NCBI GenBank assembly: GCA_903926465.1
Contig: CAIYJE010000098.1
Location: 1-64,000, forward strand
DNA from: an uncultured Planctomycetales bacterium
Lineage (GTDB): Bacteria; Planctomycetota; Planctomycetia; Isosphaerales; Isosphaeraceae
Direction of reading: 5' to 3'
Length of the DNA stretch: 64,000 nucleotides
Shown here: positions 1 through 11,250 of the stretch, in pieces
Layout of the letters: the number at the start of each line of letters is the position of its first letter
Numbering within the stretch: position 1 is the first letter of the stretch
The notes under the pieces: model-generated
Databases searched by the model: none
Told to the model about the DNA's origin: nothing
The model's input: the letters and a program-made list of their open reading frames with translations, nothing else
Translations under genes and position numbers: made by a program

Positions 1-215
1 CAAACCAGCGAGCCTAGGGTACGACGATTGGTGGTTGGAGGTGGAATGGTTGGAAGGTCACATCCTGTAAGCGGAGAGACCTGGGTGATCCAAGGTTGGT
101 GTTCATGCTCGAAAGCGAGCCGAAGAGCCAGTCGCCCAGGAGTCAGAGCACCCATAGTAGCGTGGAAGCCGGGTAACTCCGGGGGAGCGAAGGGGTGCAG
201 GAAGGTGGAGACGTG

Positions 216-1547
216 ATGTCAAAGTCGACGGAAGATCAACCGGCAGTAGTGCTGGAAACAGCTAAGCGCACCGGAGACTCCCCGCCCCAATGGGGTTGGG
301 TGGAACCGTCGGTTTGGACAGAGCGGATGCTGACAGCCCTCGAACAGGGGGTCAAGGGAGGCCGATGGTTTAGCTTGATGGACAAGGTACATCCTGAACG
401 AACGCTCATAGCAGCGTTTGAAGCAGTCGCCCGTAACCAAGGGGCGGCCGGGGTGGATCATGTCACAACAACGATGTTCGAGGCACACCTGGCATCGAAT
501 CTGAAGAATCTTAGCGAGGACTTGCGGACGGGTCGTTACCGCCCGCAGTCGATCCGCCGACACTACATCCCCAAACCTGGGAGTGAGGAGAAGCGACCGT
601 TAGGGATCCCCACTGTTCGAGACCGGGTGGTCCAGACGGCGTTGCGTTATGTGCTGGAGCCGATATTTGAGCGGGACTTTGCGAAACACAGCTATGGCTT
701 TCGCCCCGGTCGGGGCTGCAAAGACGCGTTGCGTTGCGTGGAGAAACACTTGAAAGAAGGCTACACGTATATCGTGGATGTCGATCTGAAGAGCTACTTT
801 GACACGATACCACACGATGGCCTGCTGTCTCTGATGAGCCAAAAGGTATCGGATGGTCGGGTGCTGTCGCTGGTGCAAGACTTCCTCCACCAAGGCGTAT
901 TGGACGGCCTGGAGGAATACACGCCCGAAACCGGCAGCCCTCAGGGTGCGGTAATCAGCCCGCTATTAAGCAATATCTATCTGAATCCCCTGGACCACTT
1001 GATGGCCGAGGAAGGTTATACGATGGTGCGCTATGCGGACGATTTCGTGATTCTATGTCGGAGTGCGGAGGAGGCGCACCGCGCATTGGAGCAGATTCAA
1101 CACTGGACGGCCACCGCCGGCCTGACGCTACACCCCACCAAGACGCGGATTGTAGACGCAACGACCGACAGCTTTGACTTTCTGGGCTACACCTTTGAGG
1201 GCGGCACCCGCCGACCCCGCAAGAAAAGCCTGACAAAGTTCAAAGATACGGTTCGTTCCAAGACCAAGCGTAACTCTGGCCGAAGCTTGCCGAAGATCAT
1301 CGAGAGTCTTCACCCAACCCTGCGGGGTTGGTTTGAATACTTCAAGCACAGTCATCGTTGGACATTCGAAAGAATTGACGGTTGGATACGGCGACGTCTC
1401 CGAGCCATTCTTCTTCGACGCGGTGGTAAACGTGGCGTCGGTCGGGGACTAGCCAACTATCGATGGCCCGATGCGTACTTTGAGGAGCGTGGGTTGTACA
1501 GCCTTCAGACGGCCCATGCTCTCGCCTGTCAGTCCTTGCAAAGGTGA
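216..1547 (+). CDS. ltrA: Group II intron reverse transcriptase/maturase
   Basis: Intron-encoded protein that helps the intron RNA fold and splice and copies it into DNA at new target sites. The 443-residue product has the N-terminal RT0-like segment (GAAGVDH), fingers/palm motifs (KRPLGIPTVRDRVVQ, YGFRPGRG), the catalytic YADD box (RYADDFVIL) and PQGAVISPLLSNIYL. A maturase X/GIIM domain follows (HPTLRGWFEYFKHS). I see no C-terminal HNH endonuclease, so insertion would depend on nicked or single-stranded targets. The ATG at 216 is preceded by GGTGGAG; an in-frame upstream ATG at 195 is less well placed. The reading frame is intact, so the element may still be active. Confidence 0.93.
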   Translation: MSKSTEDQPAVVLETAKRTGDSPPQWGWVEPSVWTERMLTALEQGVKGGRWFSLMDKVHPERTLIAAFEAVARNQGAAGVDHVTTTMFEAHLASNLKNLSEDLRTGRYRPQSIRRHYIPKPGSEEKRPLGIPTVRDRVVQTALRYVLEPIFERDFAKHSYGFRPGRGCKDALRCVEKHLKEGYTYIVDVDLKSYFDTIPHDGLLSLMSQKVSDGRVLSLVQDFLHQGVLDGLEEYTPETGSPQGAVISPLLSNIYLNPLDHLMAEEGYTMVRYADDFVILCRSAEEAHRALEQIQHWTATAGLTLHPTKTRIVDATTDSFDFLGYTFEGGTRRPRKKSLTKFKDTVRSKTKRNSGRSLPKIIESLHPTLRGWFEYFKHSHRWTFERIDGWIRRRLRAILLRRGGKRGVGRGLANYRWPDAYFEERGLYSLQTAHALACQSLQR

Positions 1548-3639: not shown

Positions 3640-5886
3640 TCAAGGCGTAAGCAAGTAGAACGGAGCCGTGATCAGCAAATGCCCGCCATGAGGTGTCTCA
3701 CGGCTGGCCGAGTCAATCACCAGCAGCGCTTCCCAGGTAAGCGGCTTGTGAATCACGCCGTCATTATCGCCACCCCAGTGCGTCCCCAGCGCGGCCTGAT
3801 TCAGAGGGATCCGGATCGGGGTCCACTCATTGGCCGGCGGGGCTGGAAGGTCAATCTGGAACACCTGGCCGGTGGCGTCTCGCAACCGAGTCCGCAACAG
3901 GTCGCCTTTCAGGTCGCCCAGAACCCAAAGGCTCGCAGCTTCCGCCGCGGCAGGTACAGCCAGCGAGCCGTTCGGAACCAGGCTCACATATCGCCAGCCC
4001 TTTTCGAACTGGTAACTGAAGTCCAACCCCGCCACCGAAGGGGCCGTGGGGTCAAGCGCCACCGCCGCAACCGGCACCGTCTGCTCGGCCTTGTTATCCA
4101 CCGAAAGTACGCTGGACCAGCCGGTCTTGACCCCCGGAGCGGTCGGGAAACCGGCCAGTGGGTGAGCCTGCACGGTCACCGAACTGGTCACCGGTTGCTT
4201 CTTCTCATCAAGCAGGTAGTAATCCAGCAGCGCGGCCGGCCGAGCCAGACGCGTGGTGAATTGCTCATCTCCATCACCAATTACCACGGGCTGAAGTCCA
4301 ACCACCGCCGGTGGCTGCCGGGTCATCACCTGGAGCAAGCCTTTGAAGCCTTTGCGAGCGGGGCTCTTCACCGAGACCCGCACCCCAGTCGCATCTGGCA
4401 CGGCCGCCAGTTCCAAAGGATCTGCACGCCAAAGATCGACCAGGGTCGAGAATTCTGTCTCGGCTTCGCCTTCAGCCCACTTCACCAGAAAGTACCGGTG
4501 AGGAGCCCGAGTGGCCACCGGTGCCAGAGGCAAACCGAGCGCACCGGCCGAAGGTCCGTCGAACTGGAACCGGGGATTGGGCGTCCCCTGGCGAATGGTG
4601 GCAATAATCTTGATGGGTGCGCCTGTGGGCGTTATCACCTGCAAGGGAACGTGATCTGGCTGGTCGCCAATTTCCGCAATGGCTCCCGGGGCGATCCGGA
4701 TCATGGCCAAGGTGCGCAGATCCTTGTAATTCGGGTGATCAGACCCCACGCTTTCAATCTTGGGCAGATCGGTAGACCGCTTGCCGGCCGAATCGGGCTG
4801 CCAGCTCACCAGCAAGTAATCGTTCGCGTCTCCCTTCTGGAACAGCAACCGCCAGGTTGGATCATCGGCGGCCGCAAAAAGCCGGTGCCGGAAGCTATAG
4901 CCATTGAGCGCGGAAATGAGCTTCTTGGCGGCCTCAAACGACGGTTTGGGGGTTAGATCCTGACGTACCGTGCCAAACCGGTGCTCGGTTTCCGCCGGGT
5001 CCGCGCCATCGTCTTTCCAGTCATAAAAAACGGACAGGTAGATCCCCTGGCTCAGATTCACCAGCCACTGGCGAACCAGATAACTGGCTTGCTCATCCTC
5101 TGTCAGACGGCCGTTGGCGGTGCTGTATCCCCACTCAGATGAGATGAGGGGCAACTGGCGTCGATCTATGGTCGAGTAACGCGCAATCAGGGCCCGAAGT
5201 CGGCCGTAATCATCGACCACGGTCTCTGGGGCCGACTCACGATAGGGGTGTACCGAGACCGCATCGACCTCGTTCAGAAGTCCCCAGCGAAACAATTGTT
5301 CGAGGTATTCCCAGGGGAACCCGGAAGTGCCAGGCCCGATCACCGTGGCGTCTGGATCAGACGCTCGCAAGGTTCTGGCCGTGGCAACTGCCAGCTTGGC
5401 GTAAGCAGTTGGGTCTGGTGCCGGCTTCCAGAACTGCGCCAGGTTTGGCTCGTTCCAGATCTCCCACATGACCTGCTTGCCGGCAAAGTGGCGGCCGGCC
5501 TGGGCGGCAAATTCCAGGAAGGCCGTTTTGGCCTCATCGCTGGCAGGGGCTTTGCCGCCATCGTACAGGTCGTTGCCGTAATCCAGGATGAACAAAATCC
5601 GTCCGCCGGCCCCTTTCACCGCGTCCACCAGCCGGTCATAGGCAGAGAAGTCAAACTTCCCCTTTTCACGCTCAACGGCGGCCCAGGTGAGGTCGGTTCT
5701 GACCCAGTGGTAGCCGGCCTCGGCCCAGCGTTCCATCTCGCCAGGCTGGGGGTCTGTGAAGTGAATGTTGACCCCAAGACCGTCAGGCACTTCCGCCGAG
5801 GGAAGCGCACCGGTCTTACGTGTCAGGCCAGGGGTTGGAATCTGGGCAAGGAGGCAGGCACCCAGTAGTAACGTCGACGCCGTCAT
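3640..5886 (-). CDS. Secreted clan GH-A glycoside hydrolase (GH5/GH39-like)
   Basis: A 748-residue exported protein with an N-terminal signal peptide (residues 1 to about 15). A TIM-barrel glycosidase domain follows: WEIWNEPN near 141-148 supplies the likely acid/base Glu146, and LISSEWGYS supplies the likely nucleophile Glu251, the arrangement of retaining clan GH-A enzymes. SVHPY near 211-215 is also typical. The C-terminal half (about 360-748) has no motif I recognise and looks like beta-sandwich modules. The ATG at 5886 overlaps the stop of the upstream ATPase gene as ATGA, so the two are translationally coupled. Substrate unknown. Coupling to a type VII-like ATPase is unusual, and whether the enzyme leaves by Sec or works with that system is open. 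Confidence 0.8.
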   Translation of the reverse strand: MTASTLLLGACLLAQIPTPGLTRKTGALPSAEVPDGLGVNIHFTDPQPGEMERWAEAGYHWVRTDLTWAAVEREKGKFDFSAYDRLVDAVKGAGGRILFILDYGNDLYDGGKAPASDEAKTAFLEFAAQAGRHFAGKQVMWEIWNEPNLAQFWKPAPDPTAYAKLAVATARTLRASDPDATVIGPGTSGFPWEYLEQLFRWGLLNEVDAVSVHPYRESAPETVVDDYGRLRALIARYSTIDRRQLPLISSEWGYSTANGRLTEDEQASYLVRQWLVNLSQGIYLSVFYDWKDDGADPAETEHRFGTVRQDLTPKPSFEAAKKLISALNGYSFRHRLFAAADDPTWRLLFQKGDANDYLLVSWQPDSAGKRSTDLPKIESVGSDHPNYKDLRTLAMIRIAPGAIAEIGDQPDHVPLQVITPTGAPIKIIATIRQGTPNPRFQFDGPSAGALGLPLAPVATRAPHRYFLVKWAEGEAETEFSTLVDLWRADPLELAAVPDATGVRVSVKSPARKGFKGLLQVMTRQPPAVVGLQPVVIGDGDEQFTTRLARPAALLDYYLLDEKKQPVTSSVTVQAHPLAGFPTAPGVKTGWSSVLSVDNKAEQTVPVAAVALDPTAPSVAGLDFSYQFEKGWRYVSLVPNGSLAVPAAAEAASLWVLGDLKGDLLRTRLRDATGQVFQIDLPAPPANEWTPIRIPLNQAALGTHWGGDNDGVIHKPLTWEALLVIDSASRETPHGGHLLITAPFYLLTP

Positions 5887-8800
5887 GGTTCGACTCCGAG
5901 AGACTTTGTTCGGCCGGCCCAGCGTGCGGTTGCCGCACTGAGCCAGTCGTCGGGGGGGACATGGTACGGTCGGAACTTCTCAAGCCGCGTCTGATCGTCG
6001 GTCACGAACAAAGCGCGGTGTGGGCCCAGGCGGTTGGCCAGCGGACTATCAATGATCGAGGCCGAGTCATTCGCACTCATCGAGAAAAGAATGCGCATCT
6101 CAAACTCCCGGAGCAAAGTCCGGTCCAGCACGCGCTGGAGACTGTTCAGGGTATCGAACCAGGTCACAATGTGAATCCCAACTGCGGGCCCTTCTCGAAC
6201 CAGTTCGCCAAACTGCTTGGATGGGCTGGGCTTCTGAACCTCGTCAGATTTGCCGAAACTGTAGCCGAAATCGTCGTCGCTTTTGCGAATATCCCTGAGC
6301 CTGGCCGCATCAAACAAGAGTAAAAACGCGGGTGGCGAGCCGGCGGCATCAACCTGGCGCTGGGCCAGGTCGTCCGACAGCTCATCGAGGAAGCCGGGAA
6401 GCTCCCTGGGTCCACCCACCTTTACATGGTGGGGTAGGCGGGCAGCCAGAGACCGCAAAACCTCGGCCGCAACATCATCGGTGGCCGTGGGATCCACCAG
6501 ATAGATCCGTACCGCCCCAGGCGCGTATTGCGCACACAGACTCAACATGGTGGCCCCAAACAAACCCCGGGCACCATCAGAATCTTGCCCCACCACCAGT
6601 AAGTGGTGCCCACCCTGGCGACGGAACACGGCGGCGGTTGGATCTTTGATCGCCACGGCATCTCCAAGCCATGCACGCGGCGAGGCCGGTGGAGTGGGCC
6701 AGGAATCGGCCTGGATCAACTGATCGAGCGTCACATTCTTCCGCAGGTCTGAGGGGAGATTCCCCTCGAAGACGATTCTGGGCCGAATCTTGCCGGCGTC
6801 TCGGGTTCGGGCCAGCTCTCGAATGGTGGCCAGGTACTTTTCCCGGTGCGCATCGGAAAGCCAGACCACCTGGAACACGTGGTTCCCTTCCACCATGCCG
6901 TTGGCATCATTGTAAATGGCCTCACCAGGACGAGACAGCAGCCGAGCCGCCGCGTTGTCCTCGCTCAGAATCAGGTGGGCGTCTGCCTCGCTGCACTGAA
7001 GCGCAATTCGTACCGCCATCTGGCCCAGAGTGCTGCGGGCCAGCGAGTAGGCACCGCTCAGGGTCTGAGAACCAAGATTGACATGAATTCCGAACGCTCG
7101 CCCCTGGCGCACCAGGCGGTCGAGCAGCAGCGCGGCATCTTGCGCAACCTTGTCTTCCTCGATGAAGAACTCCTGGAACTCGTCAACAATCAGCAGCGTT
7201 CGGGGCAAGGGGGCGGCCCCGGGCACCTCTCGGTAGCCTGCCATATCTTGCACGCCCATCGTTCGGAACAGGTCGCCGCGGCGGGTCAGTTCTTCATCCA
7301 GCCGCTGGAGCACGCTCAGGCCAAACTCACGTTCGCTCTCAATCGCAATCACTCTGGCGTGCGGCAGTTCTTGCTCCGCGTAGGTCTTGAATTCCACACC
7401 CTTCTTGAAGTCGATCAGATAGAACTCGATCTCATCGGGACTGTAAATGAGCGCGGAGTTGGTGATGAGCGCATGCAGCAGTGAGGATTTGCCGGACCCG
7501 GTGCGGCCCGCAATAAGCACATGCTGTGACGTTCCCCGTCCGAGCTTCATCGACTGGAGCTTGGTTGCCCCCGCGCGTCCGAGCGCCACATCGATTCCGT
7601 GGCGGGTGTCGCCGGTCCAGTAACGGTCTGGGCTAGGCGCAACGGCTTCAAACGGAACCTCAACACGACTGGCCGACCGCGTGGCCTCTCCAATTTGATG
7701 CAGCAACGGAGTAAGCACCGCGTCGGCAGGCGGCACGTCGGGCTCTAGCTCGAAGGGGGCAAAATCTCGGTTCTTCCAGAGAAACCGTGCGCGTTTCGGC
7801 TCCCATACCAGCGTTTCAGCGTGCGCTTCAAGTTCTTCAATCTTGACGCTGGCTGGTAACGGCTGGTCTTCGTCTACCATGAGCAGCGTGTAAATTCCGC
7901 AACGAGCACCGCCGGTGGCCAGGCTCATTAGCCGTTGCGCACTCTGATCCTGGAAATGCGCGGGGAAGTGAGAAACCACCAGCACTCGGTACGGTTCGGC
8001 CACTTCGCCAGCCTGGTGGTTGTACTCTTCCAGAGTCTTGAACTCGTTCCTGAGGAACTGCTGGATCACATTTTCCATGTGCAGGCTGAGGTCGGCCAGA
8101 CGCTGCTCAATTTGCGCGGGTTCGGTCCAGATTCGGCTGTTGACCATCTGTTCCGAGTAATCGGCCAGGTGCATGAAGGCCGCGAAGTGCCTGCCCAGCC
8201 CCACGGGATCGAGAATGGTGAACCGGATCTTGCCTGGCGGCAGCGACGTCAGATATCTCAGCATCACGCCTTGCAAAATGGGCACGCCTGCGGCTTTGCC
8301 GGCCCCGGCAGCCCTGATGAGCAATGAGCCGCGGTCTGGGAACGTCAAAAGCGAGGGCAACTGACCTGTTCCCGGAACCTTGGGCGTTAACTCCGGGAAC
8401 GCGTGACTTGGCACACCGTGGGGAATCTTCTCCAGGTCGATCGCCATCTGGCCAAACCGGAGCGCGGGCGGCACCTCCACAGACGGCTTCCACTGGACCG
8501 GCGATTGGTTCCAGTCCAGGAACCGCCTACTGGCCTCTGCATTCACAAGGTCAATCGCCCGCTCCGCGCTCTCCAGCCCGCCATTCCAGCGTGTGACCAG
8601 GCGAGACCATTCTCGCTGGTACCGCTCTTCGGTTTCCTTGGTGCCCAATGCAAGGTCGCTCTCAATCCTTGCACTCTCCGCTTTCAGCCGCTGCGCGACC
8701 TCTGTTACCTTCCGCGTCTGCGTTTGCTCGGCCTCGGCCAGCTTCTGGTCCCGAAGATTCTTGGCCTTTTCCAGCCTGATCTTTGTGCTCTCTTCCAGCG

Positions 8801-9884
8801 CCTCCAAGGTGCTATTCGTCCGCTCCTCGATTTCCGACATCCGGCGAGCGAACACCTTGCTGACCTTCTTGATCTCCGTGTCTCGTTTGACTTGCAGTTG
8901 CTCACGTTCGGCCTTCAGTCGGCCGGCCCCCTGTTCGCCGCACTGGCGTCCCAAATCCTCAGACCTCCGGAGCGCTGCCAGCAGTTCTGGGACCCGGTCC
9001 TGAATCTCAGCCCGCGCCTTCCCTTCCAGAAATCGTTTGATCCCGAACCCGCTCGCCAGAGCAACCAGAATTGCCACCGGAATGCCAATCCAAACGTTGA
9101 TCAGAAACCCAAGGACCACTCCCAGAACGATCAAAGGGCCCAGAAAAAGCCAGGTTACGCCGGCGCCAGCAAGAAATTGAGGCAAACTCAAACTTGCCAG
9201 TTCCAGGATTCGCTCTTCAACGTCCGTCAACGCCTCTCGAAGCTTGGGGAGCGGCTCAGCAGAGTCTGGCTCTGGTTCCTCGGTGTCTGGTGGTACATCC
9301 GTGGAAATCTGATACTTTGCATACGAGTCCAGAACGGTCTGGGCCTCTCCCTCCCTGAGCTGGAACCGGCTTCGCTCATCGGCCAGTTGTTGCTGGAACC
9401 GCTCGTATCCCGTAAGGCTGTTCTGTTCAGATGCCTCGGAAAGCGCATTCGCTTCCCACTTGGCCTGATCGTGGGTCTGAGTGGCCTCGTCTTTATCGTC
9501 GATAGCCTGCCGGGCAACCTTGGCCCTGGTAGATTTGTCATGCTCGCGAGCGGTCAGGGTTTCCGTTTCATACTCATGCAAAACGTTATTGCGAACCCGA
9601 TCAAATTCCGCCTCGGCCTGACTTTGCGTCTTGCTGGTTTCCGCTTTGAGGGCGGCAAGTTGATCTCGGTGGCTGGTTCCCGCAGACTGGTTGCGTGCCT
9701 CCCTCAGAGAGACGACCTCGCTTTCGCCACGAGCCCGTTCGGCCGCCAGCGTTTGCAGCTCACGTGGAATGAGCGCGGGGAGGCTGGGCCATGGGGTATT
9801 TGCTGGAAACGGCGATGGAACATCCACAGGCTTACCAGCAGTTTCTGGGGGGTTGGCCGGGTTCTGAGAGGGTTGTAAGTTCAT
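5883..9884 (-). CDS. FtsK/SpoIIIE-family (EccC-like) membrane ATPase
   Basis: Motor ATPase of the FtsK/HerA class, here with the three-module build of type VII secretion EccC proteins. The N-terminal 220 residues are charged and predicted coiled coil. Two membrane segments follow near 230-285 (LFLGPLIVLGVVLGFLINVW and VAILVALASGF), then a second long coiled coil. Module 1 near 520 has a degenerate P-loop (AAGAGKAAG). Module 2 has a canonical Walker A (GRTGSGKSS, near 795) and Walker B (LLIVDEFQEFF, near 900). Module 3 near 1090 has lost the P-loop lysine (GQDSDGARG). I placed the start at ATG 9884, 16 bases after the preceding gene; an ATG at 9947 would overlap that gene. No SD is evident at either. 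Genes for two WXG100-like proteins lie just upstream. Confidence 0.88.
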   Translation of the reverse strand: MNLQPSQNPANPPETAGKPVDVPSPFPANTPWPSLPALIPRELQTLAAERARGESEVVSLREARNQSAGTSHRDQLAALKAETSKTQSQAEAEFDRVRNNVLHEYETETLTAREHDKSTRAKVARQAIDDKDEATQTHDQAKWEANALSEASEQNSLTGYERFQQQLADERSRFQLREGEAQTVLDSYAKYQISTDVPPDTEEPEPDSAEPLPKLREALTDVEERILELASLSLPQFLAGAGVTWLFLGPLIVLGVVLGFLINVWIGIPVAILVALASGFGIKRFLEGKARAEIQDRVPELLAALRRSEDLGRQCGEQGAGRLKAEREQLQVKRDTEIKKVSKVFARRMSEIEERTNSTLEALEESTKIRLEKAKNLRDQKLAEAEQTQTRKVTEVAQRLKAESARIESDLALGTKETEERYQREWSRLVTRWNGGLESAERAIDLVNAEASRRFLDWNQSPVQWKPSVEVPPALRFGQMAIDLEKIPHGVPSHAFPELTPKVPGTGQLPSLLTFPDRGSLLIRAAGAGKAAGVPILQGVMLRYLTSLPPGKIRFTILDPVGLGRHFAAFMHLADYSEQMVNSRIWTEPAQIEQRLADLSLHMENVIQQFLRNEFKTLEEYNHQAGEVAEPYRVLVVSHFPAHFQDQSAQRLMSLATGGARCGIYTLLMVDEDQPLPASVKIEELEAHAETLVWEPKRARFLWKNRDFAPFELEPDVPPADAVLTPLLHQIGEATRSASRVEVPFEAVAPSPDRYWTGDTRHGIDVALGRAGATKLQSMKLGRGTSQHVLIAGRTGSGKSSLLHALITNSALIYSPDEIEFYLIDFKKGVEFKTYAEQELPHARVIAIESEREFGLSVLQRLDEELTRRGDLFRTMGVQDMAGYREVPGAAPLPRTLLIVDEFQEFFIEEDKVAQDAALLLDRLVRQGRAFGIHVNLGSQTLSGAYSLARSTLGQMAVRIALQCSEADAHLILSEDNAAARLLSRPGEAIYNDANGMVEGNHVFQVVWLSDAHREKYLATIRELARTRDAGKIRPRIVFEGNLPSDLRKNVTLDQLIQADSWPTPPASPRAWLGDAVAIKDPTAAVFRRQGGHHLLVVGQDSDGARGLFGATMLSLCAQYAPGAVRIYLVDPTATDDVAAEVLRSLAARLPHHVKVGGPRELPGFLDELSDDLAQRQVDAAGSPPAFLLLFDAARLRDIRKSDDDFGYSFGKSDEVQKPSPSKQFGELVREGPAVGIHIVTWFDTLNSLQRVLDRTLLREFEMRILFSMSANDSASIIDSPLANRLGPHRALFVTDDQTRLEKFRPYHVPPDDWLSAATARWAGRTKSLGVEP

Positions 9885-9900
9885 GGAGGAATCACGGGGC

Positions 9901-10113
9901 TCAAGAAAGGTCGCGATAGATTTTGGAAAAAAGGTCTCGAAGATCATCCATCGCCCGCAGGGCCTTGGACGCGTGATTCAGAAGGGGCTCGATCTGGTGC
10001 TGCTCAAAGTCTTTCCGCACCTGATCACGCCAATCATGCTCTGTGCCGTCCCAGGCCTCTTTCAGCGCCTTGGTGGCTTGCGATAGCTGGCCAATACCGG
10101 ATCCAAAATACAT
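9901..10113 (-). CDS. Short WXG100-like protein (70 aa)
   Basis: A 70-residue, all-helical, charged protein with no signal peptide. The segment AWDGTEHDWRDQVRKDFEQ has the look of the WXG100 turn and second helix: an aromatic-x-Gly/Asp turn followed by a conserved Phe seven residues on. The larger WXG100 protein of the locus has the matching SWRDREHDKF. It is shorter than the usual 90-100 residues, so the first helix is abbreviated. It starts 3 bases after the stop of the previous gene and ends 16 bases before the ATPase start, clearly in one operon. Inferred role: a small type VII substrate or pairing partner. The assignment rests on pattern and context. Confidence 0.7.
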   Translation of the reverse strand: MYFGSGIGQLSQATKALKEAWDGTEHDWRDQVRKDFEQHQIEPLLNHASKALRAMDDLRDLFSKIYRDLS

Positions 10114-10116
10114 GAC

Positions 10117-10791
10117 TTAACCCTCGGCTGTCTCTGGTGAAGGAATCTGGGCCTCATTGGTTTCCGAGCTGCTGTGAACTTCTGGAGCGGCAACCGCAGG
10201 CTCAGAAGCTGTCGAAGGATGACCGTCGCCGGCAGGCTCGTCCAGCGGCCTGGCCACCGAAGCCCTGAGGTTCTCGGCCCGCACGTCCCGGGTGGTCTGC
10301 GTGGATGGCGGCCCGCCAGAAGCATACTCTTCCAAGGCGCGGATCATCCGATCAAGCATCGCCAGGCCGCGTTGCAGGTCGCCACTCACGCAGTCACCCA
10401 GCGGCTGTGCGGCCCCTCGATACTCCATGAGGGCCTGCTGGAGTGGCTGTTGCCAGCGTTTAACCCTGGCAAGCTGGGCCTCTGCATACTCCAGCTTTTT
10501 CGTGGCCATCCGCACAAGCTCCTTGGGCTCTGCAAGGTTCCCCTCGTTCCCCATCACCTGCGAGGTTCGCTTCCTGAACAATTCCGCCTTGTAGGTGGCC
10601 AGTTCCTGACGACAGTGGCGAATCTGGCTATCCCAGTAAAGACGTCGATCGTTTTGCAGCCAGTTCACCATCCGAGAAATTTCCATCTCGGTGGCTGAAA
10701 GTGCATTGCGCGCATCGTCGCCAAATAAACAGAGCGCCGTGTGCACATCTCGCAGAACCTGGATACTGGATACATGGACCGGGAGCGCCAT
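10117..10791 (-). CDS. All-helical protein of the type VII-like locus, unknown function
   Basis: 224 residues with no signal peptide or membrane segment. Residues 1-160 are heptad-rich amphipathic helices (AELFRKRTSQVMGNEG and AQLARVKRWQQPLQQAL among them). The last 60 residues are Pro/Ser/Glu-rich and probably disordered. A good SD (AGAGGAG) precedes the ATG at 10791. It lies between the WXG100 gene and the 70-aa WXG100-like gene, ending 3 bases before the latter. The size, helical front and disordered tail would fit a secreted helical substrate or an assembly/chaperone factor, but I do not recognise the family. Confidence 0.75.
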   Translation of the reverse strand: MALPVHVSSIQVLRDVHTALCLFGDDARNALSATEMEISRMVNWLQNDRRLYWDSQIRHCRQELATYKAELFRKRTSQVMGNEGNLAEPKELVRMATKKLEYAEAQLARVKRWQQPLQQALMEYRGAAQPLGDCVSGDLQRGLAMLDRMIRALEEYASGGPPSTQTTRDVRAENLRASVARPLDEPAGDGHPSTASEPAVAAPEVHSSSETNEAQIPSPETAEG

Positions 10792-10880
10792 TGAAATCTC
10801 CTCTTTGCCACCACCAGGGCGAAACCGCTGAATTTCCCGCCAAAACCGATACGCTCCGGTTTCCAGTAGGCACCTTTACT

Positions 10881-10968
10881 GCGATTAACGATTGAGGCGC
10901 ACAGCCGGGAAAGCCGCCCTCGGCTTTCTCTTGGACGTGTTTGTGCGTGCAACCCAATTGTGAACCGC
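10881..10968. mobile_element. Small TIR element, family 1, inside the type VII-like operon
   Basis: About 88 bp with terminal inverted repeats GCGATTAACGATTG and (other strand) GCGGTTCACAATTG, 11 of 14 matching. It has a perfect 8-bp internal hairpin GAAAGCCG-CCCT-CGGCTTTC at 909-928 of this kilobase. It fills about half of the only sizeable gap in the operon, between the WXG100 stop and the next SD. It may be a late insertion and could attenuate transcription into the downstream genes. Confidence 0.6.
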
Positions 10969-10977
10969 GATCGCCGC

Positions 10978-11250
10978 TTAACGCTGACGCAGGTACTCCT
11001 CAGCGCGATCGGCTTTTCGAAGCAAGAAGGGGACGTGCTGCTCTGAAGACTCCAGGAACCGCGCAATCACCTGGGCCGTCTGCTGAAACTCATCGACAAA
11101 TTTATCGTGCTCGCGATCTCGCCAGCTTGTGGCCAGACCAGCAAGCTGGCCATTCAGGGCCTGCATCTGAGCCTGAAGCTGGCCATTGAAATTCTTGAGC
11201 GAGAGCGCGAAGCGGCGCAACTCGGCCGGATCAACATGGGCCTGAGACAT
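10978..11250 (-). CDS. WXG100 family protein (ESAT-6-like)
   Basis: A 90-residue helical-hairpin protein with no signal peptide, the size and build of ESAT-6/EsxA-type substrates of type VII secretion. Helix 1 spans roughly residues 8-40. The turn carries Trp in ATSWRDREHDKF (about residues 41-52), so the classical W-x-G is W-R-D here. Helix 2 continues to about 85. The start at ATG 11250 (MSQAHVDPAELRR) gives the expected length, although an in-frame upstream ATG exists at 11310. First gene of the locus that continues to the FtsK/EccC-like ATPase. Family members form dimers that are exported by EccC-type motors. The WXG100 assignment is fairly secure; export is inferred. Confidence 0.83.
   Translation of the reverse strand: MSQAHVDPAELRRFALSLKNFNGQLQAQMQALNGQLAGLATSWRDREHDKFVDEFQQTAQVIARFLESSEQHVPFLLRKADRAEEYLRQR

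What the first reader, a model, noticed from the sequence alone, without database searches (positions are those of the whole stretch)
5883..11250. Compact type VII secretion-like locus in a planctomycete
Seen: four same-strand genes run as WXG100 (90 aa), all-helical 224-aa protein, 70-aa WXG100-like protein, and a 1333-aa FtsK/EccC-like ATPase with two membrane helices, long coiled coils and three P-loop modules of which only the middle one keeps a full Walker A. Known: EccC-type ATPases export WXG100 proteins in actinobacteria and Firmicutes. Here there is no EccB, EccD, EccE, EssA or EssB homologue and no mycosin, so the system would be minimal or built differently. The outer two ATPase modules appear catalytically dead, and two coiled-coil arms replace the usual accessory domains. 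I know of no characterised planctomycete example.
Basis: partly seen in the sequence, partly recalled or inferred. Interest (0 to 1): 0.82.

Follow-up and report, generated by a model that had tools for sequence, protein, structure and literature searches.

The report
Minimal four-gene export-like module in planctomycetes
The window holds a complete, conserved set of four genes, a motor protein plus three small helical proteins, related to the type VII protein-secretion machinery of other bacteria; this kind was noted in passing in a 2012 survey, but I found no experimental test of what it does in planctomycetes.

Summary
Four minus-strand genes (WXG100 90 aa; helical 224 aa; WXG100-like 70 aa; three-module FtsK/EccC-type ATPase) lie where stated, and only the middle ATPase module keeps Walker A (0/31, 30/31, 0/31 relatives). 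It is a true system. In 294 planctomycete genomes the ATPase occurs in 41, the WXG100 in 40 of those 41 and in none of the 253 others; the two other small proteins follow the same pattern, usually one copy each. In one lineage the four genes are scattered round the chromosome yet all are kept. No neighbour is conserved. The ATPase forms a clade of its own (100/100), apart from EccC and FtsK in the rows tested, with plasmid cousins in Rhodococcus, Caballeronia, Deinococcus and Helicobacter. In the Helicobacter cousin the protein in the 224-aa position ends in a WHH/colicin-type nuclease and is followed by a SUKH immunity gene. I infer that the 224-aa hairpin is the carrier, here without payload, and that the module works like a stripped-down type VII exporter. 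Export is not shown. The kind is not new: Zhang et al. 2012 (PMC3482391) noted it, planctomycetes included; H. pylori HP0062 is the nearest solved WXG100.

The parts
10978..11250 (-). WXG100 protein, 90 aa, W-x-D turn; invariant P8, W43, D45, F51, F55, K79, A80, Y86, L87 in 23 homologues
   Evidence: Pfam WXG100 9.9e-9; alignment A1; best PDB match HP0062 of H. pylori 6e-13, then EsxB/EsxA; the only PF06013 match in the whole genome
10117..10791 (-). 224-aa helical protein ('mid'): long two-helix hairpin (residues 10-79, 87-157) plus a variable low-confidence tail; candidate carrier
   Evidence: AlphaFold2 model, helix blocks mostly at mean pLDDT 93 or above, tail about 50-65; family A3 found only in genomes that have the ATPase, apart from 3 marginal partial hits
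9901..10113 (-). 70-aa second WXG100-like protein with invariant W28-x-D30
   Evidence: A2 alignment; hhalign to A1 E 7.7e-7, prob 92%; EsxA match 1.3e-4
5883..9947 (-). Membrane-anchored three-module FtsK/EccC-type ATPase, 1354 aa (likely start 9884, 1333 aa)
   Evidence: Pfam FtsK_SpoIIIE 5.9e-36; NCBIfam EccCa 104 bits vs FtsK 36; model pLDDT 87.9, best Foldseek match EccC 4nh0 2.2e-33
9228..9770 (-). N-terminal coiled-coil-like arm of the ATPase (about residues 60-240); read from sequence, not modelled
   Evidence: sequence; poorly conserved across relatives
9042..9179 (-). Membrane segment of the ATPase (about residues 257-302); hairpin of two helices in most relatives
   Evidence: hydropathy: 277-295 in the window protein, two segments in 24 of 30 relatives
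8523..9035 (-). Second coiled-coil-like arm (about residues 305-475); read from sequence, not modelled
   Evidence: sequence
7638..8495 (-). ATPase module 1 (residues 485-770): RecA-like, no Walker A in any homologue
6768..7625 (-). ATPase module 2 (residues 775-1060): catalytic; Walker A GRTGSGKS at 814-821, DEF Walker B, RQGRA; 58-71% identical to the 28 other homologues aligned
   Evidence: alignment A5
5913..6695 (-). ATPase module 3 (residues 1085-1345): RecA-like, no Walker A in any homologue

Best explanation
It is a self-contained, four-protein machine that works like a stripped-down type VII exporter and belongs to a separate family of WXG100 + three-module ATPase systems. Shown: the four proteins form one functional unit (near-identical presence/absence, kept even when unlinked); the motor has a membrane segment and a catalytic RecA module between two modules without Walker A; two partners are WXG100-like and the third is modelled as a long helical hairpin. 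Inferred: the two WXG100-like proteins pair as targeting partners; the long hairpin is the carrier that the motor recognises and pushes through or into the cytoplasmic membrane; its variable C-terminal tail is what is carried. In plasmid cousins a toxin-like domain sits in that place (clearest in Helicobacter); in the window it is only a short low-confidence tail, so here the substrates are probably the hairpin proteins themselves.
For: Co-occurrence: ATPase in 41 of 294 genomes; WXG100 in 40 of those 41 and 0 of the 253 others; mid and small the same, apart from 3 marginal partial mid hits. Scattered but retained: in G105 the four genes lie at 0.23, 0.71, 1.94 and 2.66 Mb of one chromosome-sized contig. 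Conserved order in most linked loci (47 of 80 named loci show WXG-mid-small-ATPase). WXG100 kinship. EccC-type architecture. Carrier idea: in Helicobacter plasmid pNHP190012_1 the protein between WXG100 and the ATPase ends in WHH nuclease (1.1e-11) and colicin-DNase (9.8e-9) domains and is followed by a SMI1/KNR4 immunity protein (1.6e-6); in Phycisphaerales the mid protein carries an Imm33-like domain (7.2e-8 and 6.3e-7). Plasmid cousins match all or most of the planctomycete ATPase profile (267-568 bits) while EccC matches only around the P-loops (70-126 bits). Clade 100/100.
Against: No export data. No EccB/EccD/EccE/EssB-like partner or outer-membrane part found at the locus, and no conserved neighbour that could supply one. 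No YxxxD/E export signal in the two WXG100-like proteins (0 of 23 each). The ATPase exposes almost nothing to the periplasm by hydropathy. In the Caballeronia and Helicobacter cousins I found no clear membrane anchor on the ATPase or its close partners. One WXG100 per genome and no payload in most planctomycetes, unlike type VII systems with many substrates. The mid protein has no Pfam LXG match, and homology between planctomycete and cousin mid proteins is weak (Rhodococcus 1.5e-6; Caballeronia 0.0064; no Helicobacter hit at the reporting limit), so their equivalence rests mainly on position and helical character.
Confidence: 0.5

Rival explanations
1. A membrane-bound motor that uses the WXG100-like hairpins as adaptors for work inside the cell or in the cytoplasmic membrane (assembly or remodelling of an envelope structure, or unfolding of a partner), with nothing exported.
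For: One copy of each gene, no payload in most members, no export signal, no outer-membrane part, almost no periplasmic mass; chromosomal and retained when scattered, as for a housekeeping function.
Against: Closest systems with WXG100 plus EccC-type ATPase are exporters, and a cousin carries a nuclease with an immunity gene. Patchy distribution (41 of 294) argues against housekeeping.
Confidence: 0.28
2. An intracellular conflict or defence module: the ATPase controls toxic effectors within the cell, and the planctomycete version is a domesticated, toxin-free derivative.
For: Cousins sit on plasmids; those in Caballeronia and Helicobacter show no clear membrane anchor; Caballeronia neighbours include Card1-like CARF nuclease, VWA, PP2C and kinase genes; the catalytic module also scores 87 bits to SspH defence ATPases; an ATPase in Rhodococcus is fused to TerD.
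Against: Nearly all planctomycete ATPases have membrane segments; the profile score to EccC is higher than to SspH; a SUKH immunity gene fits delivered toxins better; no toxin in most planctomycete members.
Confidence: 0.14
3. A DNA translocase of the FtsK kind whose WXG100 neighbours are incidental.
For: The catalytic module superposes on FtsK at Z 31, rmsd 2.6 over 281 residues.
Against: Near-perfect co-occurrence with WXG100 even when unlinked; a separate full FtsK exists in the genome (213 bits); profile 36 bits to FtsK vs 104 to EccC; tree separates it from FtsK.
Confidence: 0.05
4. A decaying remnant of a mobile type VII system.
For: Zhang et al. 2012 call this kind 'mobile versions of T7SS'; outer ATPase modules have lost Walker A.
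Against: The same losses are fixed in the homologues examined, the catalytic module is 58-71% identical to the window's across the 28 others aligned, and all four genes are intact and retained together.
Confidence: 0.03

Closest known systems
'Solo WXG' systems with a three-module YueA-like ATPase (Zhang et al. 2012, PMC3482391, Table 1 footnote 6)
   Same: WXG protein plus a distinct ATPase with three HerA/FtsK domains, only the middle one active; planctomycetes are on their list
   Different: They give one footnote and call them mobile; here the set is four genes, single-copy, on chromosome-sized contigs in several genomes, and the two further helical proteins are part of it
HP0062 cluster of Helicobacter pylori (PMC3397514)
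   Same: Small homodimeric helical hairpin with a WRD turn, in a cluster with an FtsK/SpoIIIE gene; best PDB match of the planctomycete WXG100 profile, 6e-13
   Different: Function unknown; the H. pylori ATPase gene itself could not be fetched; a Helicobacter plasmid cousin carries a nuclease payload and shows no clear membrane anchor
Type VII secretion, T7SSa-T7SSj (EccC/EssC = TsxC, EsxA = TsxA; PMC11217815)
   Same: WXG100 plus an EccC-type multi-module FtsK ATPase; in EccC too the first ATPase is the catalytic one (own knowledge)
   Different: Most have a YukD/EccD-like protein, further membrane proteins and four C-terminal NTPase domains; here three modules, two coiled arms and three small hairpin proteins
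FtsK/SpoIIIE DNA translocases
   Same: Fold of the catalytic module (Z 31)
   Different: Weak profile score, separate clade, WXG100 partners, genome has its own FtsK
LXG effectors of T7SSb
   Same: A helical N-terminal part followed, in cousins, by a variable payload and an immunity gene
   Different: No Pfam LXG match to the 224-aa protein; no payload in most planctomycetes

Membership tests
WXG100 superfamily | Match to the Pfam WXG100 profile over its cut-off | tested here: met
   PF06013 9.9e-9, 35.8 bits vs cut-off 27.3
WXG100 superfamily | W-x-G in the turn | tested here: not met
   W-x-D in 23 of 23; HP0062 has WRD too
WXG100 superfamily | NCBIfam WXG100_ESAT6 type VII target cut-off | tested here: not met
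   31.2 bits vs 44.85
Type VII secretion system | EccC/EssC orthologue by curated cut-off | tested here: not met
   104 bits vs cut-off 509 (EccCa), 103 vs 347 (EccCb), 102 vs 778 (EssCb)
Type VII secretion system | WXG100 protein functionally tied to an FtsK-type ATPase | tested here: met
   40 of 41 vs 0 of 253 genomes
Type VII secretion system | YukD/EsaB/EccD ubiquitin-like part | tested here: not met
   7 of 10 carrier genomes have none; the 3 hits lie next to ThiF/E1-like, JAB-like and (in two of the three) E2-like proteins of ubiquitin-like operons, read by eye. T7SSd also lacks it
Type VII secretion system | EccB | tested here: inconclusive
   0 of 10 genomes, but the control rang nowhere
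Type VII secretion system | EccD membrane part, EccE, EssA, EssB, mycosin | not tested
   none conserved at the locus; genomes not searched for them
Type VII secretion system | C-terminal YxxxD/E export signal | tested here: not met
   0 of 23 in WXG100 and small, 1 of 23 in mid, last 25 residues
Type VII secretion system | Protein export | not testable with these tools
   needs secretome or fractionation experiments
Solo-WXG / three-module ATPase kind (Zhang 2012) | ATPase with three FtsK/HerA modules, only the middle active, with a WXG protein | tested here: met
Solo-WXG / three-module ATPase kind (Zhang 2012) | Mobile | tested here: not met
   on the 6-8 Mb contigs of G024, G105, G152, G291, usually single copy; cousins are on plasmids
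FtsK/SpoIIIE DNA translocases | Profile and tree placement | tested here: not met
   36 bits vs cut-off 1566 for DNA translocase FtsK; separate clade 100/100
LXG effector | Pfam LXG domain | tested here: not met
   no match among families up to E 1

The most novel reading that the evidence does not exclude
A four-protein exporter for bacteria with two membranes, in which a single protein carries the membrane anchor, coiled-coil arms and motor, and the long hairpin protein is carrier, substrate and structural part at once; toxin delivery in mobile cousins was turned into a fixed housekeeping or surface function in planctomycetes.
Probability: 0.25. Interest if true: 0.8.

Novelty: new variant of a known kind. 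Interest (0 to 1): 0.55.

Why it matters
Type VII secretion has been worked out in Gram-positive and mycobacterial cells; a WXG100-motor pair in bacteria with an outer membrane has been listed in surveys but not confirmed as a secretion system. This module is small (four genes), sharply defined by co-occurrence, present in named planctomycetes (Singulisphaera sp. GP187, Gemmata sp. IIL30, Limnoglobus roseus), and its WXG100 is related to a long-standing orphan of H. pylori (HP0062). It offers a minimal case for asking what a WXG100 motor needs in order to work, and whether diderm WXG100 systems export anything.

Tried and rejected
Conserved neighbours: large single-linkage clusters were kinase/response-regulator chains and antisense ORFs; kinase immediately upstream in 2 of 82 loci, compared with 1.8% of all called neighbours, so rejected. 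Mid protein vs PDB: best Foldseek E 0.033, generic coiled coils such as SMC arms, uninformative; sequence search of PDB likewise. Homology of mid to WXG100 not shown by clean profiles (prob 14%); earlier cross-hits came from profile drift. Viral contigs: 65 FtsK-like relatives, none with an end-to-end ATPase match or WXG100. Padloc gives SspH (87 bits) and mad8, below the EccC score; not followed as membership. Register of the three modules against EccC is unsettled: sequence favours module 2 = EccC ATPase 1, the 4nh0 superposition spans model 1-856 on EccC 419-1315 and would align modules 1-3 with ATPases 1-3. First tree had a very long EccC D3 branch; rebuilt without it and one short FtsK row. 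Helicobacter chromosomes and other phyla could not be sampled (genome-contig scan spent). Sutcliffe 2011 and Unnikrishnan 2017 are not held.

Full report
OBSERVATION. Pfam calls WXG100 (9.9e-9) and FtsK_SpoIIIE (5.9e-36, three stretches). The genome (6.9 Mb, 207 contigs, 99.7% complete) has no other PF06013 match and a separate canonical FtsK (213 bits).

IT IS A UNIT. Searching 294 genomes of the phylum with the ATPase finds it in 41. A WXG100 profile built from 23 of these loci finds a match in 40 of the 41 and in none of the 253 others, nearly always one place per genome (G232 has a second partial match). The mid profile gives true hits in 39 and three marginal partial hits elsewhere; the small profile 40, all in ATPase genomes, with a few weak extra hits mostly onto the WXG100 itself. 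The one ATPase genome without a WXG100 hit (G219) is an 80%-complete, 880-contig assembly. In most linked loci the order is WXG-mid-small-ATPase (47 of 80 named loci), but in one family (f2) genes are scattered: in G105 the ATPase lies at 0.23 Mb, WXG100 at 0.71, small at 1.94 and mid at 2.66 Mb of one 6.8-Mb contig, and in G087 they lie on four contigs. Linkage is therefore not what keeps them together; joint function is the simplest reading. No other neighbour is conserved. A pattern scan of 84,980 species genomes gave at least 595 matches; among the best 80, those named to phylum or below are all Planctomycetota (Singulisphaera, Gemmata, Limnoglobus, Paludisphaera, Aeoliella, Schlesneria, Phycisphaerales), and two are titled only 'bacterium'.

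THE PARTS. WXG100: length 90 in nearly all aligned members, W-x-D turn in 23 of 23, C-terminal KAxxIxxYL; best solved relative is HP0062 of Helicobacter pylori (6e-13), then EsxB and EsxA. Small protein: W-x-D in 23 of 23 and related to the WXG100 by profile-profile comparison (E 7.7e-7). Mid protein: model with two 70-residue helices and a low-confidence tail; across planctomycetes the tail is variable and rich in A, P, S, G and E, and in several Phycisphaerales it holds an Imm33-like domain (7.2e-8 and 6.3e-7, over the cut-off in two). ATPase: membrane segment, three RecA-like modules in a good model (pLDDT 87.9, pTM 0.80). Walker A occurs in 0/31, 30/31 and 0/31 members for modules 1, 2, 3. 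The closest Foldseek match over the whole length is EccC of Thermomonospora (2.2e-33); the catalytic module by itself also superposes closely on FtsK (Z 31), as expected for this superfamily.

RELATIVES. tblastn of module 2 against plasmids gives Rhodococcus (7e-70), Caballeronia (5e-58), a second Rhodococcus, Deinococcus and Helicobacter (1e-37), then EccC at about 1e-14. The cousins match all or most of the three-module planctomycete profile (267-568 bits), EccC only around its P-loops (70-126 bits). In the tree of module 2 the family is one side of a branch at 100/100; only four EccC proteins and four FtsK-like rows were included, several branches are long, and the root is unknown. WXG100 homologues sit beside the ATPase in Caballeronia (3e-27), Helicobacter (1e-17), Rhodococcus AH-ZY2 (5e-13) and Deinococcus (7e-11). 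The protein in the mid position is larger there: in Helicobacter sp. NHP19-012 it is 340 aa and ends in WHH-nuclease (1.1e-11) and colicin-DNase (9.8e-9) domains, followed by a SMI1/KNR4 immunity protein (1.6e-6). In Caballeronia (436 aa) and Rhodococcus (314 aa) there are C-terminal domains without a Pfam match; that they are toxins is a guess. I found no clear membrane anchor on the Caballeronia and Helicobacter ATPases; in Deinococcus, Rhodococcus pseudokoreensis and planctomycete G107 a separate neighbouring protein has membrane segments.

HOW IT PROBABLY WORKS. Shown: composition, co-occurrence, predicted fold, one module with catalytic motifs. Inferred: WXG100 and small form a helical pair; the long hairpin is the carrier; the motor, held in the cytoplasmic membrane, drives the carrier through or into it. 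The tail takes the place of a payload. I put export at about one half. Against it stand the missing envelope parts, the missing YxxxD/E signal, the apparently anchorless cousins, the weak sequence link between planctomycete and cousin mid proteins, and the lack of any export data.

KNOWN OR NEW. Zhang et al. [quoted passage not shown] A 2023 review (PMC10765036) says WXG100 plus FtsK in Gram-negatives is not confirmed as secretion, and PMC3397514 describes HP0062 with a WRD turn and an FtsK/SpoIIIE gene in its cluster. What I did not find described is the strict four-gene set, its single-copy chromosomal and non-mobile nature in planctomycetes, the second WXG100-like protein, and the long hairpin as carrier.

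LIMITS. Other phyla and Helicobacter chromosomes could not be sampled; the EccB search had no positive control; EccD membrane part, EccE, EssA, EssB and mycosin were not searched genome-wide; coiled coils were not modelled; no complex prediction was possible; gene calls in relatives come from a simple script of my own.

Noticed in passing
window 3640-5886 (-): A 748-aa GH5/GH39-like glycoside hydrolase gene (Pfam Cellulase 4.1e-12) starts inside the ATPase stop codon (overlap 5883-5886); it is not conserved next to the module elsewhere.
   Followed up: partly
window 195-1547 (+): Group II intron reverse transcriptase/maturase (RVT_1 8e-43, GIIM 3.1e-16).
   Followed up: no
L190 5885-8217 (G000:C67, own genome): The YukD-family match of the genome is a ubiquitin-like protein beside what read as E2-, ThiF/E1- and JAB-like proteins; similar operons in L191 and L192. 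A bacterial ubiquitin-like system, not part of type VII secretion.
   Followed up: partly
L109, L136, L161 (Phycisphaerales/Phycisphaeraceae) and L142 (unnamed bacterium): The mid protein has a C-terminal Imm33-like domain of about 100 residues; two of the matches pass the Pfam cut-off, two do not.
   Followed up: partly
L174 3922-16819 (Caballeronia plasmid pSBC2-5): WXG100/ATPase locus flanked by VWA, Card1-like CARF nuclease, VWA, PP2C phosphatase, protein kinase and AAA genes, recalling the kinase/phosphatase/VWA parts of T7SSc.
   Followed up: no
L173 5709-6177 (Rhodococcus sp. AH-ZY2 plasmid): The ATPase cousin has an N-terminal TerD domain (1.2e-20), with TerD and DUF475 genes nearby.
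   Followed up: no
L092 3173-7292 (G079): The planctomycete ATPase is split into 634 and 644 aa genes, like EccCa/EccCb, followed by a 94-aa protein with two membrane segments.
   Followed up: no
L064 6042-12569 (G107): Divergent member: WXG100, a 972-aa ATPase without a membrane segment, then a 983-aa protein with three membrane segments and a weak HEAT match; no mid or small gene found.
   Followed up: no
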